A program made the translations under genes and the position numbers. The notes beneath the pieces were generated by a model. That model saw only the letters and a program-made list of their open reading frames with translations. It ran no database searches and was not told the origin of the DNA. A DNA stretch of 64,000 bases from Erythrobacter sp. HL-111 (GTDB taxonomy: Bacteria > Pseudomonadota > Alphaproteobacteria > Sphingomonadales > Sphingomonadaceae). The stretch spans positions 1,550,001-1,614,000 of the forward strand of contig NZ_LT629743.1 of NCBI RefSeq assembly GCF_900105095.1, in the 5' to 3' direction. Position 1 is the first letter of the stretch. Each line of letters begins with the position of its first letter. Of the stretch, positions 17,438 through 26,562 are shown one piece after another.

Positions 17438-20400
17438 ATGCAGGCCGCCTGCCGGGCGGACCCGGGCGCCTTCCACGGCGCCATCGCCAAGCGCCGCATC
17501 TGCTGGTTCGTGCCCGACGCCGGGACCAACGGCGCCTGGGCGTTCTTCGACGACGACCGGGGCGGCTGGACCGGCTGGGACGCAGCGACCGGCGAGGCAT
17601 TGGATTTCGACTGGCCCGAAGGGTTCGAGCCGTGGACCCGTGCCTTCAACGACGATTCCCCGCCCGACTGGCGCTGGTTCGAAGGCGGGCTGACCAGCAC
17701 CGCCTTCAACGAGGTCGACCGCCACGTGCTTGCCGGCCATGGCGAGGAAGCGGCGCTGATCTACGAAGGCGACCGCTGGAACATGGCGAGCGACGGCGGC
17801 CGCGGCGGACCCGTCGATTCGGAAATCGTCTCGCGCCGCAAGCTGCTGCTCGAAAGCGCGAAATGCGCCCTCGCGCTCAAGGCGCTGGGGGTGAAGCCGG
17901 GCGACCGCATCGCGCTCAACATGCCGAGCATCCCCGCACAGATCTACTGGACCGAAGGCGCCAAGCGCATGGGCGTCGTCTACACGCCCGTCTTCGGCGG
18001 GTTCAGCGACAAGACCCTGTCCGATCGCATCGCCGATGCCGGGGCGCGCGTGATCGTCACCGCCGACGGGTCCTTCCGCAACGCGCAGATGGTGCCGTTC
18101 AAGCCCAGTTACACCGATCCCGCGCTCGACAATTTCATTGCCGTGCCGGTCGCGCTCGACCTGATGGACAAGGCGCTGGCTGACAAGGAACTGTCTGTCT
18201 CCGATGCGCAGGCGGGCCTGATACGCGAGACGGTCGCAGAGGTGCTCGAAGGCGAGGTCACGGTCGAACGTTCCGACGTGATGCGCGGCGTGGGCAAGGC
18301 GTTGAGCGCGATCGGCGCCGGCGAACTCGGCGGGGACGCGCTCACCCCGAAACAGGCCGCGCAGCTTCGCATCGCCATCGCCGAGGCGCTGGTCGCCTCG
18401 CCCGAGCGGGTCGATGCCGTGGTCGTCGTCAGGCACACGGGGCAGCCCGACCTGCCATGGAACGCGGGCCGCGACCACTGGAGCCACGACCTCACCGACA
18501 AGGCGGGAGAGGACCTGCTCGCCGCCGCGCGCGCAGCGGGCTTCGACGTCGCGGACGAGGCGGCGCTGCTCGCGCTGCCCGACGACGAATTCGTGCGGGC
18601 GATCTGGGCGGGCTCTCCGGTGCTGCCGGTCGATGCCGAATATCCCAATTTCATCATCTACACCTCGGGCTCGACCGGCAAGCCCAAGGGCGTGGTCCAT
18701 GTCCATGGCGGCTATGCCAGCGGCGTCGCGGCGACCATGCCCGCCGCTTTCGGGGCGGAGCCGGGCGACGTGCTCTATGTCGTCGCCGATCCGGGGTGGA
18801 TCACCGGGCAAAGCTATCTCATCGCCGCCGCCCTTCTCACCCGCGTCACCACCGTCGTCACCGAGGGTTCGCCGGTCTTCCCCCATTCGGGCCGCTTCGC
18901 CGCGACGATCGAGCGCTATGGCGTCACCATCTTCAAGGCCGGCGTCACCTTCCTGAAATCGGTGATGCAGAACCCGGAGAACCTGAAGGACATCCAGCGC
19001 TACGACCTGTCCTCATTGAAATGCGCGACCTTCTGCGCCGAGCCGGTCTCCCCGGCGGTGCAGGCCTTCGCGATGGAGCACGTGACCCCTCGCTACATCA
19101 ATTCCTACTGGGCGACCGAGCATGGCGGCATCGCCTGGACCCATTTCGCCGGATCCGAGGGCTTTCCGCTCGAAGCCAACGCGCACACTTTTCCGCTGCC
19201 CTGGATCATGGGCGACGTCTGGGTCGAGGACGAAGGCGGTTCCTGCGCCAGCGAAACCGCCGGCTACGCCCGCGCCGACGACGGCGGCGCGCCGTGGCGG
19301 CCCGCCGGGGAAGGCGAAAAGGGCGAGATCGTCATTGCCCTGCCCTACCCCTATCTCACCCGCACCATCTGGGGCGATACCGGGCGTTTCGAGGTCGAGG
19401 TGAAGGACGGCGCGGCGCGCGTCAGCCCCGCCTGGCGCGGCGATACCGCCCGCTATGGCGAGACCTACTGGAAGCGCTGGCGCGGGACCTGGGCCTACAC
19501 CCAGGGCGATTTCGCCATGCGCCACCCGGACGGCTCCTTCTCGCTCCACGGGCGTTCGGACGACGTCATCAACGTCTCGGGCCACCGCATCGGGACCGAG
19601 GAGATCGAGGGCGCGATCCTGCGCGACAAGTCGCTCGATGCCGCCTCCCCGGTCGGCAACGTCATCGTAATCGGCGCGCCGCACAGCCAGAAGGGCGTGA
19701 CCCCCGTCGCCTTCGTCACGCCGGTCGAGGGCCGCCGGTTGACGCAGGACGATCGCCGCCGCCTGACCGACCTCGTCCGCACCGAAAAAGGCGCGGTCGC
19801 GGTGCCTTCGGACTTCATCGAGCTGTCCGAATTTCCCGAGACCCGTTCGGGCAAATATGTCCGCCGCATGGTCCGCGCCGTGGTCGAAGGGGGCGATGTG
19901 GGCGATGTTTCGACCCTGCGCAATCCGGACAGCCTCGAAGAGCTGAGGCGCGCGGTCGAAGCGTGGAAGCGGCGGCAGGACCTTTCGGACAGCCAGTCCC
20001 TGTTCGAGCGGTATCGCTTCTTCACGGTGCAGTACAACACGCTCGCGCCGGGCAAGCGGGTCGCCACGGTCACCGTCGCCAATCCCCCGGTGAATGCGCT
20101 CAACGAACGGGCGCTCGACGAACTCGTGATCATCGCCGGGCACCTCGCGCGCAAGGACGACGTGGTCGCCTGCGTCTTCACGGGCAGCGGCACGGCGAGC
20201 TTCGTTGCGGGCGCGGACATCCGGCAGATGCTCGAGGAGGTGAACAGCGCCGAGGAAGCCAGGGCCCTGCCCGACAACGCGCAGCTCGCCTTCCACACGA
20301 TCGAGACCATGGGCAAGCCGTGCATCGCCGCGATCCAGGGCGTGGCCCTTGGCGGCGGCATGGAATTCGCGCTCGCCTGCCATTACCGTGTCGCCGAACC

Positions 20401-25900: not shown

Positions 25901-26562
25901 CGATCCGGGTGATGATCGAGGACTGCAAGGTCGCGCACTGCGTCCTCGTCACCGGCAATGCCGCACGCGAAAAGGCCGTGCGCGACCTGCTGGGGAAGGA
26001 CATCGGCGCAGACGCGCTCCACGTCCTCGTCGCGGGCGATGCGATCGAACAGGCGATGGACGAGGCGCTGTCGAAATGGGGCCGGCCGACCACGGTCGTC
26101 TCGATGCCGCCCGAACCGCTCCCCGCGACCCTGCTCGACGACGGCAAGGTCCTGCCGACCGCGCAATTCGCGAAGATGGTCGAAGACCAGGTCACCCGGC
26201 ATTACCGGATCGCGCGCAAGGCCTCGCTCTACGACCACTGCCAGGTCGTGCTGGTTTCGCCCGAGGTGCCCTATGGCAGCGACGGGGCGGATTTCGCCTT
26301 CGCCAATTTCGTCAAGACCAGCCTTCACGCCTTCACCGCCACGCTCGCGGTCGAGAACGAGCGGCTGGTGCACGATGTCCCGGTCAACCAGATCAACCTC
26401 ACCCGCCGGGTCCGCAGCGAGGAACCGCGCGACGAGGCGGAGCACGCCGAGGAACTGAAGCGCTTCACCCGCGCGGTCCTGCTGGTCGGCGCTCCGCTCC
26501 CCGACGCGCAGGATTCGCGCTACCGGGCGCGGATCTACCGCGGGACTTCGATGACGGTGTAA
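22903..26562 (+). CDS. mcr: Bifunctional malonyl-CoA reductase (malonyl-CoA to 3-hydroxypropionate)
   Basis: 1219 residues, the usual length for the Chloroflexus-type enzyme, made of tandem SDR units. The N-terminal unit has ALVTGAAGNLGSEICRAFA and a Tyr178-xxx-Lys182 pair (AYVVPKAALNAL). In the known enzyme this half reduces malonate semialdehyde to 3-hydroxypropionate. The C-terminal unit starts near 565 with VAFITGGSAGIGGQVARLLA and has Tyr732/Lys736 (YGLSKAGQRAM). It corresponds to the half that reduces malonyl-CoA. The GTG start at 22903 overlaps the pcs stop as GTGA, with GGAG at 22892-22895 as ribosome binding site. Confidence 0.95.
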   Translation: MSKTGEEAKKGRLANRIALVTGAAGNLGSEICRAFAREGAFVIMTGRTAERIGKAREALIADTGVAPERVDVAVLDGSDPDSIRAAFKKIKADYGRIDILINNAGSAGPKQPLHNVPFTAEEREAAGESETVSDAMRNILGVTWNLARIAAPMMPTGGAMVNISTIFSHTRYYGRTAYVVPKAALNALSRQLARELGPRGIRVNTVFPGPIESDRIRTVFAAMDAVQNQPENTTANYFTSRMALTRPVKGKLDGKPLPAPADIAGACLFLASEEAGGITGEEIDVTHGLSANRDSSSTYMTRPSMRSLDGAGLAIFIAAGEEWAEAIESAKVLVGAGATVRLGLARNADVAQARARLKAQGTGEELTVTRFARSEPQAMEAALADFERDAGAPITGAIVLPVKPAGHFSGPLLKADDATVGTFMETELTGAIATARSFARYWRGHADMPSPPRCVFMTNPGDGAGNAFAGVLSAGITQLIRVWRDEERVQADNGETHHAVWSNQIVRHTNAEVENIRFAAGHATRVLFREQRIAEIDLKLPASIAEETGARKAMVGFAENITGLHLGKVAFITGGSAGIGGQVARLLALAGAKVMMVARRESELVAARERIVGELQDIGFAGVERRVKIMADVDVSDFASLDRAIDATLEEFGRIDYLINNAGVAGAEDMVVDMEPDAWRFTLDANLVSNYHLMSRVVPLMKEQGSGYVLNVSSYFGGEKFLAVAYPNRADYGLSKAGQRAMVENFSAYLGPEVQFNAIAPGPVDGDRLSGTGGKPGLFQRRAKLILENKRLNAVYEAVIEAIRGGADADRILTRLSRNSTSTLSHDAEAPETLRKLALDFAAEGDGVCTWDQYLLTEGMAQRLLVRLQLGGMLIGSNEWTQYCEAGGATWLKLVPPQDKPFLPQAQVDKVAAGVGRGVISQLHLGAMPTEAEVAQATVFFLADRAVSGETFMPSGGLRVERSNTEREMFGSPKPERVAQMEGKTVWIMGGHLADYVAETIRVMIEDCKVAHCVLVTGNAAREKAVRDLLGKDIGADALHVLVAGDAIEQAMDEALSKWGRPTTVVSMPPEPLPATLLDDGKVLPTAQFAKMVEDQVTRHYRIARKASLYDHCQVVLVSPEVPYGSDGADFAFANFVKTSLHAFTATLAVENERLVHDVPVNQINLTRRVRSEEPRDEAEHAEELKRFTRAVLLVGAPLPDAQDSRYRARIYRGTSMTV

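What the first reader, a model, noticed from the sequence alone, without database searches (positions are those of the whole stretch)
17438..26562. Complete malonyl-CoA to propionyl-CoA module (pcs-mcr operon) in a heterotroph-like alphaproteobacterial setting
The window shows full-length pcs (all three catalytic parts with their motifs) and full-length mcr (both SDR units with Tyr/Lys pairs) overlapping by 4 bases. In Chloroflexus these two enzymes carry the first reductive arm of the 3-hydroxypropionate bicycle. In Erythrobacter-type bacteria the enzymes are known, but the rest of the bicycle is generally not complete and the physiological use is unclear. Neither a carboxylase nor the later bicycle enzymes lie here. 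The operon may serve as a reductant sink, in mixotrophic carbon assimilation or 3-hydroxypropionate use.
Basis: partly seen in the sequence, partly recalled or inferred. Interest (0 to 1): 0.85.

Follow-up and report, generated by a model that had tools for sequence, protein, structure and literature searches.

The report
Photosynthesis-linked CO2-assimilating gene pair pcs-mcr
Two genes here encode a known route that turns malonyl-CoA into propionyl-CoA; the bacterium also carries photosynthesis genes and enzymes that could finish the job to succinyl-CoA, and among the genomes examined this gene pair occurs almost only in photosynthetic bacteria, so it is probably a light-paid way of fixing extra CO2.

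Summary
Pcs (17438-22906) and Mcr (22903-26562) are full length, overlap by 4 bases and keep the catalytic residues I could check: 16 of 16 functional residues of Roseiflexus Mcr. The pair itself is a known kind.

The setting is not plainly heterotrophic: the genome has a type II photosynthetic reaction centre, a propionyl-CoA-carboxylase-like pair, methylmalonyl-CoA mutase, an epimerase-like gene, AccA, AccD and isocitrate lyase. A full-length mesaconyl-CoA hydratase was not found.

New quantitative results: Mcr occurs in 32 of 318 family genomes; 30 of these 32 have a reaction centre, against 31 of 286 others (p 8.5e-23). Of 79 named Mcr genomes from four phyla, 72 have a type II centre and 2 more match the type I model. 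Isocitrate lyase is present in 31 of 32 Mcr genomes, so the module does not replace the glyoxylate shunt. In 35 of 98 loci accA directly follows mcr; in 11 genomes it is a second copy.

Best reading: a mobile, light-linked CO2 co-assimilation arm, acetyl-CoA to succinyl-CoA. Activity and flux are inferred. New member of a known kind.

The parts
17438..22906 (+). pcs, propionyl-CoA synthase, 1822 aa; true start possibly upstream (CTG 17396)
17606..19960 (+). Pcs part 1: acyl-CoA (3-hydroxypropionyl-CoA) synthetase; AMP-binding, K806
   Evidence: PF16177, PF00501, PF13193; acyl-CoA ligase models to residue 841; K806 in 76 of 76 Pcs
20057..20764 (+). Pcs part 2: enoyl-CoA hydratase (3-hydroxypropionyl-CoA dehydratase); E976, E996
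   Evidence: PF00378 at residues 874-1109
21140..22030 (+). Pcs part 3: acrylyl-CoA reductase, crotonyl-CoA-reductase-like; the reductase continues beyond this best-matched stretch (PF13602 at residues 1677-1784)
   Evidence: TIGR01751 at residues 1235-1531; 4gi2
22903..26562 (+). mcr, bifunctional malonyl-CoA reductase, 1219 aa, overlaps pcs by 4 bases
22936..23769 (+). Mcr N-terminal SDR1 (malonate semialdehyde reductase), T165-Y178-K182
   Evidence: residues from PMC10470521
24601..25203 (+). Mcr C-terminal SDR3 (malonyl-CoA reductase), S714, Y726, R729, Y732, K736
   Evidence: residues from PMC10470521
16223..16954 (-). divergent Crp/Fnr-type regulator, neighbour of unknown relevance
   Evidence: PF13545 and PF00027; not clustered with any predicted gene of the other 97 loci
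16955..17437 (.). intergenic region upstream of pcs; holds a perfect 22-bp tandem duplication at 16967-17010

Best explanation
The operon makes the reductive arm malonyl-CoA -> 3-hydroxypropionate -> propionyl-CoA, fed by acetyl-CoA carboxylase, in a likely aerobic anoxygenic phototroph. Propionyl-CoA is then carboxylated and rearranged to succinyl-CoA by propionyl-CoA carboxylase, epimerase and methylmalonyl-CoA mutase encoded elsewhere in the genome. Net (established pathway chemistry): acetyl-CoA + 2 HCO3- + 3 NADPH + ATP -> succinyl-CoA. It runs beside isocitrate lyase, not instead of it, and its ATP and NADPH cost is most easily met in the light; that is why the gene pair stays with reaction-centre genes. 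Shown: the genes, their residues, the co-occurrence with reaction centres and the presence of the downstream genes named below. Inferred: enzyme activity, direction, light control and flux.
For: Intact enzymes with conserved catalytic residues. Own genome: carboxyltransferase of PccB type, epimerase-like gene, mutase and biotin carboxylase of PccA type within 475064-485536 (the mutase is an equivalog match), AccA and AccD, two reaction-centre genes. Mcr in 32 of 318 family genomes; reaction centre in 30 of these 32 against 31 of 286 others, p 8.5e-23; within six mixed genera 15 of 16 against 6 of 19, permutation p 0.0009. Named Mcr genomes: type II centre in 72 of 79, type I match in 2 more. 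In G489, of another family, pcs-mcr lies beside the reaction-centre genes with apparently one gene between. accA directly follows mcr in 35 of 98 loci; 33 of the 38 mcr-linked copies form one clade, and 11 genomes hold such a copy beside a second accA. Mutase in 31 of 32 Mcr genomes. Published: genes of the 3-hydroxypropionate bicycle go up in daytime in a Porphyrobacter (PMC10674011, passages).
Against: Half of the reaction-centre genomes of the family sample lack Mcr (31 of 61). The window operon itself has no accA. No PpsR, Fnr or CRP site enrichment upstream of pcs (79 loci). Seven of 79 named Mcr genomes lack a type II match: three Chlorobiales, of which two match the type I model weakly, and four MAGs. 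The mutase is common to all sorts of genomes in the set (65 of 66), so it does not single out this route. AccC and AccB were not looked for. The 149-aa epimerase was named from its sequence; no family model reached the threshold used, and the two carboxylase genes matched no model above its cut-off. A published survey reports key enzymes of the cycle in Actinobacteriota MAGs (PMC9802188 section 7), which my scan did not return. No expression or flux data for this organism.
Confidence: 0.6

Rival explanations
1. Reductant sink: the operon mainly burns excess NADPH, with propionyl-CoA as a by-product that is stored or recycled.
For: Three NADPH-linked steps (family knowledge); reaction centre present.
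Against: The route also costs ATP and fixes carbon; relatives add a carboxylase gene to the operon (accA; single-chain carboxylase in L088 and a same-cluster gene in L097).
Confidence: 0.15
2. Replacement of the glyoxylate shunt for acetate assimilation.
For: The net product, a C4 acid from acetyl-CoA, is of the same kind (pathway knowledge).
Against: Own genome has an isocitrate lyase (NF005074 at 1055 bits, cut-off 446); 31 of 32 Mcr genomes have one of two isocitrate lyase types, and among phototrophs 29 of 30 with Mcr and 30 of 31 without. Malate synthase was not searched.
Confidence: 0.05
3. Complete autotrophic 3-hydroxypropionate bicycle.
For: First-cycle genes are largely present; the cycle is published as complete in some phototrophic Burkholderiales and in Gemmatimonadales MAGs (PMC9802188 section 7); Methylibium L111 has a lyase-family and a hydratase-family gene before pcs.
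Against: In the own genome mesaconyl-CoA hydratase PF19315 matches only about half the profile, in frames of 169 and 190 aa. Lyase, CoA-transferase and mesaconyl-C4-CoA hydratase were not searched for.
Confidence: 0.07
4. Uptake and use of external 3-hydroxypropionate, or supply of propionyl-CoA for odd-chain lipids or polyesters.
For: Pcs alone would convert 3-hydroxypropionate (family knowledge).
Against: mcr, which makes 3-hydroxypropionate, lies beside pcs in 89 of 98 loci; the recurrent neighbour whose family I determined as metabolic is accA. Most other neighbours were not annotated.
Confidence: 0.08

Closest known systems
pcs and mcr of Erythrobacter/Porphyrobacter-type bacteria (PDB 6eqo; 6k8s, 6k8v; organism names of these entries recalled)
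   Same: Same domain order, catalytic residues and pcs-mcr gene order.
   Different: The window's Mcr lies in another clade than that of the same-genus genome G260 (61% Mcr and 69% Pcs identity; best elsewhere 69% and 80%) and lacks the accA that follows mcr in most of the Erythrobacter/Porphyrobacter loci.
3-hydroxypropionate bicycle of Chloroflexus/Roseiflexus
   Same: First-cycle enzymes, acetyl-CoA to succinyl-CoA.
   Different: Second, glyoxylate-assimilating cycle not found complete (one of its enzymes tested); isocitrate lyase present.
Porphyrobacter sp. ULC335 (PMC10674011)
   Same: Phototroph described with key bicycle enzymes, proposed CO2 co-assimilation, genes higher by day (passages read).
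Burkholderiales and Gemmatimonadales MAGs with the bicycle (PMC9802188)
   Same: Key enzymes together with predicted photosynthesis in the two Burkholderiales families named there (section 7).
   Different: They are reported there as candidate autotrophs by pathway completeness; here only the first arm is supported.

Membership tests
Bifunctional malonyl-CoA reductase (Mcr) | Full-length protein of about 1220 aa with N- and C-terminal catalytic SDR units | tested here: met
Bifunctional malonyl-CoA reductase (Mcr) | Residues shown or proposed to be functional in Roseiflexus Mcr | tested here: met
   16 of 16 present in the window (list from PMC10470521 passages)
[quoted passage not shown]
   needs purified enzyme
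Propionyl-CoA synthase (Pcs) | Fused ligase, hydratase and reductase in one chain of about 1800 aa | tested here: met
Propionyl-CoA synthase (Pcs) | Ligase Lys and hydratase Glu pair (roles recalled) | tested here: met
   K806, E976, E996
3-hydroxypropionate bicycle | First-cycle genes: Acc, Mcr, Pcs, Pcc, epimerase, mutase | tested here: inconclusive
   AccA, AccD, Pcc-like pair and mutase found; epimerase named from sequence only; AccB and AccC not searched
3-hydroxypropionate bicycle | Mesaconyl-C1-CoA hydratase (full-length PF19315) | tested here: not met
   own genome: only partial matches, profile 20-169 and 11-166 of 353
3-hydroxypropionate bicycle | Malyl-CoA/citramalyl-CoA lyase, mesaconyl-CoA transferase, mesaconyl-C4-CoA hydratase | not tested
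Aerobic anoxygenic phototroph | Type II reaction centre genes with bacteriochlorophyll genes | tested here: met
   two PF00124 genes at own C1:1448492-1450254 and nitrogenase-like reductase genes nearby, one with the PCP_red domain
Aerobic anoxygenic phototroph | Bacteriochlorophyll made under oxygen | not testable with these tools
   needs culture

The most novel reading that the evidence does not exclude
Full-length Mcr with Pcs is an accessory module of chlorophototrophy across Pseudomonadota, Gemmatimonadota, Chloroflexota and (as Mcr, with no pcs found beside it) Chlorobiota: a horizontally mobile cassette, in one large branch with its own AccA, that lets mostly aerobic phototrophs turn light-derived ATP and NADPH into CO2 fixed on acetyl-CoA while the glyoxylate shunt serves the dark.
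Probability: 0.45. Interest if true: 0.75.

Novelty: new member of a known kind. Interest (0 to 1): 0.55.

Why it matters
Aerobic anoxygenic phototrophs are usually thought unable to fix much CO2. A near-exclusive tie between Mcr and reaction centres in the genomes examined, independent of isocitrate lyase, gives a concrete and testable route by which light could raise their CO2 assimilation. It turns the question of what these enzymes do in Erythrobacter-type bacteria into a gene-deletion and 13C-labelling experiment, and it offers mcr as a marker for which phototrophs may do this.

Tried and rejected
Glyoxylate-shunt replacement: tested by two isocitrate lyase searches over the same 318 genomes and rejected. 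The first search gave a mixture of classical enzymes (50 genomes with two strong pieces each) and weak matches, of which one fetched example proved to be a Pseudomonas-type enzyme (best PDB match 6g1o; that this is the P. aeruginosa enzyme is recalled).

Light or oxygen control by PpsR, Fnr or CRP sites upstream of pcs: no enrichment over shuffles or other upstream regions in 79 loci, apart from a slight FnrL half-site excess (9 loci against 4 by mononucleotide shuffle; 0.114 against 0.079 of other upstream regions) that I do not count.

Conserved neighbourhood: apart from pcs (89) and accA (38), the widest gene cluster is in 14 of 98 loci, a PAS-GGDEF-EAL gene divergent to pcs. Physical linkage to the reaction-centre genes: about 117 kb from pcs in the own genome, 62-118 kb from mcr in G001, G095, G134, G207 and G272, next to it in G489, but over 1 Mb in G236, G260 and G038; no general rule (coordinates; not tested statistically).

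Named and family sets overlap in genomes, and many named genomes are MAGs. Within-genus strata hold only genomes whose genus was printed. Trees are 'quick' ones and carry long-branch warnings. Gene calls outside the window are from my own simple caller.
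Full report
1. The genes. The window lies at 1,550,001-1,614,000 of a single-contig genome of 3.19 Mb. ORF 17438-22906 (+) encodes 1822 aa and ORF 22903-26562 (+) 1219 aa, overlapping by 4 bases. The first has acetyl-CoA-synthetase-like, enoyl-CoA hydratase and crotonyl-CoA-reductase-like parts and aligns over nearly its whole length with PDB 6eqo (that this entry is the Erythrobacter NAP1 propionyl-CoA synthase is recalled). 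The second aligns full length with 8hjw and 8hi4 and in halves with 6k8v and 6k8s. All 16 residues of Roseiflexus castenholzii Mcr that I took from PMC10470521 (passages) are present, mapped through the uncultured Roseiflexus locus L117; 14 of these 16 columns hold the same residue in 91 of 91 Mcr sequences, one in 87 of 91, and one in 87 with 4 gaps. K806, E976 and E996 of Pcs are the residue of their columns in 76, 75 (one X) and 76 of 76 sequences (roles recalled). Homology of Pcs continues about 15 codons before its first ATG with no ATG, GTG or TTG in frame, so the start is unsure and may be CTG 17396.

2. Neighbours. Upstream and divergent lie a Crp/Fnr-type regulator, an HWE histidine kinase and a response regulator; downstream and convergent an L,D-transpeptidase. 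No window gene other than pcs and mcr in the stretch compared (5001-42000) clusters with a predicted gene of the other 97 loci. A perfect 22-bp tandem duplication lies at 16967-17010.

3. Rest of the genome. Carboxyltransferase search: five matches, among them AccA (490904) and AccD (1004521), both equivalog matches. At 475064-485536 lie a carboxyltransferase (475064), an epimerase-like 149-aa gene (476920, named from sequence, no family match at the threshold used), methylmalonyl-CoA mutase (478345; NF006944 at 1197 bits, cut-off 876) and a biotin carboxylase subunit (483476). The two carboxylase genes are called propionyl-CoA carboxylase from arrangement and size; no model named them so. Isocitrate lyase lies at 544201 (NF005074, 1055 bits, cut-off 446). 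Two reaction-centre genes lie at 1448492-1450254 with nitrogenase-like reductase genes, one with the PCP_red domain of protochlorophyllide reductase, so the bacterium is a likely aerobic anoxygenic phototroph. Mesaconyl-CoA hydratase matches only partially, in frames of 169 and 190 aa. Other second-cycle enzymes, AccB, AccC, malate synthase and RuBisCO were not searched.

4. Distribution in the family. In 318 genomes drawn from the family, Mcr (E <= 1e-80) occurs in 32, in 11 of 96 genera. The reaction centre family PF00124 occurs in 61. Both occur in 30; Mcr without reaction centre in 2 (G022 and G190, 67% and 88% complete); reaction centre without Mcr in 31; Fisher p 8.5e-23. Relatedness inflates this, so I permuted within the six genera that hold both Mcr states, as far as genus was printed (35 genomes): 15 of 16 Mcr genomes and 6 of 19 others have a reaction centre, p 0.0009. 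The window's genus has Mcr in 2 of the 7 genomes sampled.

5. Isocitrate lyase. Classical enzyme: 50 of 318 (the genomes with two strong pieces); Pseudomonas-type: 220 of 318; none has both, 270 have one. With Mcr 31 of 32 (G256, 82% complete, has none found); among phototrophs 29 of 30 with Mcr and 30 of 31 without. The module is therefore not a substitute for the glyoxylate shunt. Mutase PF01642: 65 of 66 genomes searched, 31 of the 32 with Mcr.

6. Beyond the family. A scan of named genomes with alignment A1 gave 80 loci, the best of 521 candidates, from Alpha-, Beta- and Gammaproteobacteria, Gemmatimonadaceae, Chloroflexota and Chlorobiales. PF00124 was found in 47 of 50 and, of the other 30 loci, in 25 of the 29 held (L056 not held): 72 of 79. 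The seven without are L121, L122 and L123 (Chlorobiales), of which L122 and L123 match the type I model PF00223 weakly and L121 does not, and the MAGs L054, L074, L082 and L102, for which type I was not searched. A class-wide sample found Mcr in 2 of 385: the own genome and G489 of another family, which also has reaction-centre genes. In G489 the order is pcs, mcr, a DUF3422 gene (cut by the boundary of my two regions), then two reaction-centre genes on the other strand and nitrogenase-like chlorophyll-reductase genes.

7. Gene order. pcs is beside mcr in 89 of 98 loci (window, 17 family loci, 80 named; overlapping genomes included). The nine others are four loci where mcr starts within about 520 bases of the locus end (L055, L074, L092, L109) and five Chloroflexales or Chlorobiales loci (L115, L119, L121-L123). 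An AccA gene (PF03255 and equivalog matches for the two examples scanned) lies near mcr in 38 of 98: directly downstream in 35, third gene downstream in L027, directly upstream in the Chloroflexota loci L117 and L118; in L070 it was read together with mcr across a run of undetermined bases and is not counted. Of the genomes searched for AccA (62 of 63 positive), 11 have two copies, one of them beside mcr (G260, G173, G284, G356, G357, G358, G361-G364, G366). In G030, G113, G219, G256 and the incomplete G022 the only copy found lies beside mcr (coordinates). The own genome has one copy, away from mcr. In the AccA tree 33 mcr-linked copies form one clade (SH-aLRT 95) apart from the 20 copies located elsewhere; L027, L033/L060 and L117/L118 fall outside it. 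In that branch the linked copy thus appears to have travelled with pcs-mcr. In Burkholderiales L088 a single-chain biotin carboxylase-carrier-carboxyltransferase follows mcr, and L097 has a gene of the same cluster; in Methylibium L111 an HpcH/HpaI lyase and a mesaconyl-CoA-hydratase-like gene precede pcs.

8. History of the window's copy. Its Mcr groups with G489, an Azospirillaceae MAG, Maricaulaceae and other alphaproteobacteria (9 rows, SH-aLRT 99), not with the same-genus G260, which sits among Porphyrobacter/Erythrobacter (the window row is flagged as a long branch). Pcs agrees at the wider level (a set of 13 rows, 100) but puts the window next to G236 and Parasphingopyxis (3 rows, 100); I leave this disagreement open. 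Identities to G260 are 61% (Mcr) and 69% (Pcs), against 69% and 80% to the best. Two separate acquisitions in one genus are the simplest reading, not a proven one.

9. Mechanism. Acetyl-CoA carboxylase makes malonyl-CoA; Mcr uses two NADPH to give 3-hydroxypropionate; Pcs uses ATP and one NADPH to give propionyl-CoA; carboxylase, epimerase and mutase give succinyl-CoA (established chemistry of these families). The cost favours use when light supplies energy. A published Porphyrobacter raises bicycle genes by day and was proposed to co-assimilate CO2 (PMC10674011, passages). Activity, direction and regulation in this organism are inferred.

10. What is known. Papers seen as passages unless stated: PMC10674011, PMC10470521, PMC11089705 (phototrophs in Microcystis blooms appear to use the bicycle, propionyl-CoA carboxylase not detected), PMC9802188 (section 7 whole), PMC6593406 (symbionts with a partial bicycle that lack Mcr and Pcs), PMC8307300, PMC3150298, PMC9342728, PMC11599936. 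In ten searches of the open-access library I saw no listing of a genome-wide test of Mcr against reaction centres or of an mcr-linked accA; two searches listed only 20 of 25 and 25 of 68 papers, most listed papers were not opened, and subscription papers are not held, so this is weak evidence of novelty.

Noticed in passing
window 16967-17010: Perfect 22-bp tandem duplication between the Crp/Fnr-type gene and pcs.
   Followed up: no
window 17303-17438: Pcs homology extends upstream of the first ATG without an ATG, GTG or TTG start; CTG 17396 is a candidate.
   Followed up: partly
L135/L136 (G489:C13:19918-32300): pcs-mcr lies beside two reaction-centre genes at the edge of a photosynthesis gene cluster, with a DUF3422 gene between.
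   Followed up: yes
L111:167-7867 (Methylibium sp. NZG): HpcH/HpaI lyase and mesaconyl-CoA-hydratase-like gene directly before pcs-mcr; genes of the same clusters precede pcs in L098.
   Followed up: partly
L088:11654-17128 and L097:8114-13519: About 1800-aa proteins directly after mcr in Burkholderiales; the L088 one was scanned and has biotin carboxylase, carrier and carboxyltransferase domains.
   Followed up: partly
genomes G006, G100, G162, G211, G314 (genus g7): Four reaction-centre matches each, apparently two separate gene pairs per genome, one gene of the second pair with open frames of 422-430 aa.
   Followed up: no
318 family genomes: Two isocitrate lyase types were not found together: 50 classical, 220 Pseudomonas-type, 0 with both.
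   Followed up: partly
L107 and L112: Records titled Klebsiella pneumoniae (MAGs) carry Mcr that groups with other gammaproteobacterial MAGs and their genomes have reaction-centre genes; the titles look mislabelled.
   Followed up: no
L058:2-2017 and 13 other loci: A PAS-GGDEF-EAL gene (the L058 one was scanned) lies divergent to pcs in loci of the Porphyrobacter/Erythrobacter branch.
   Followed up: no
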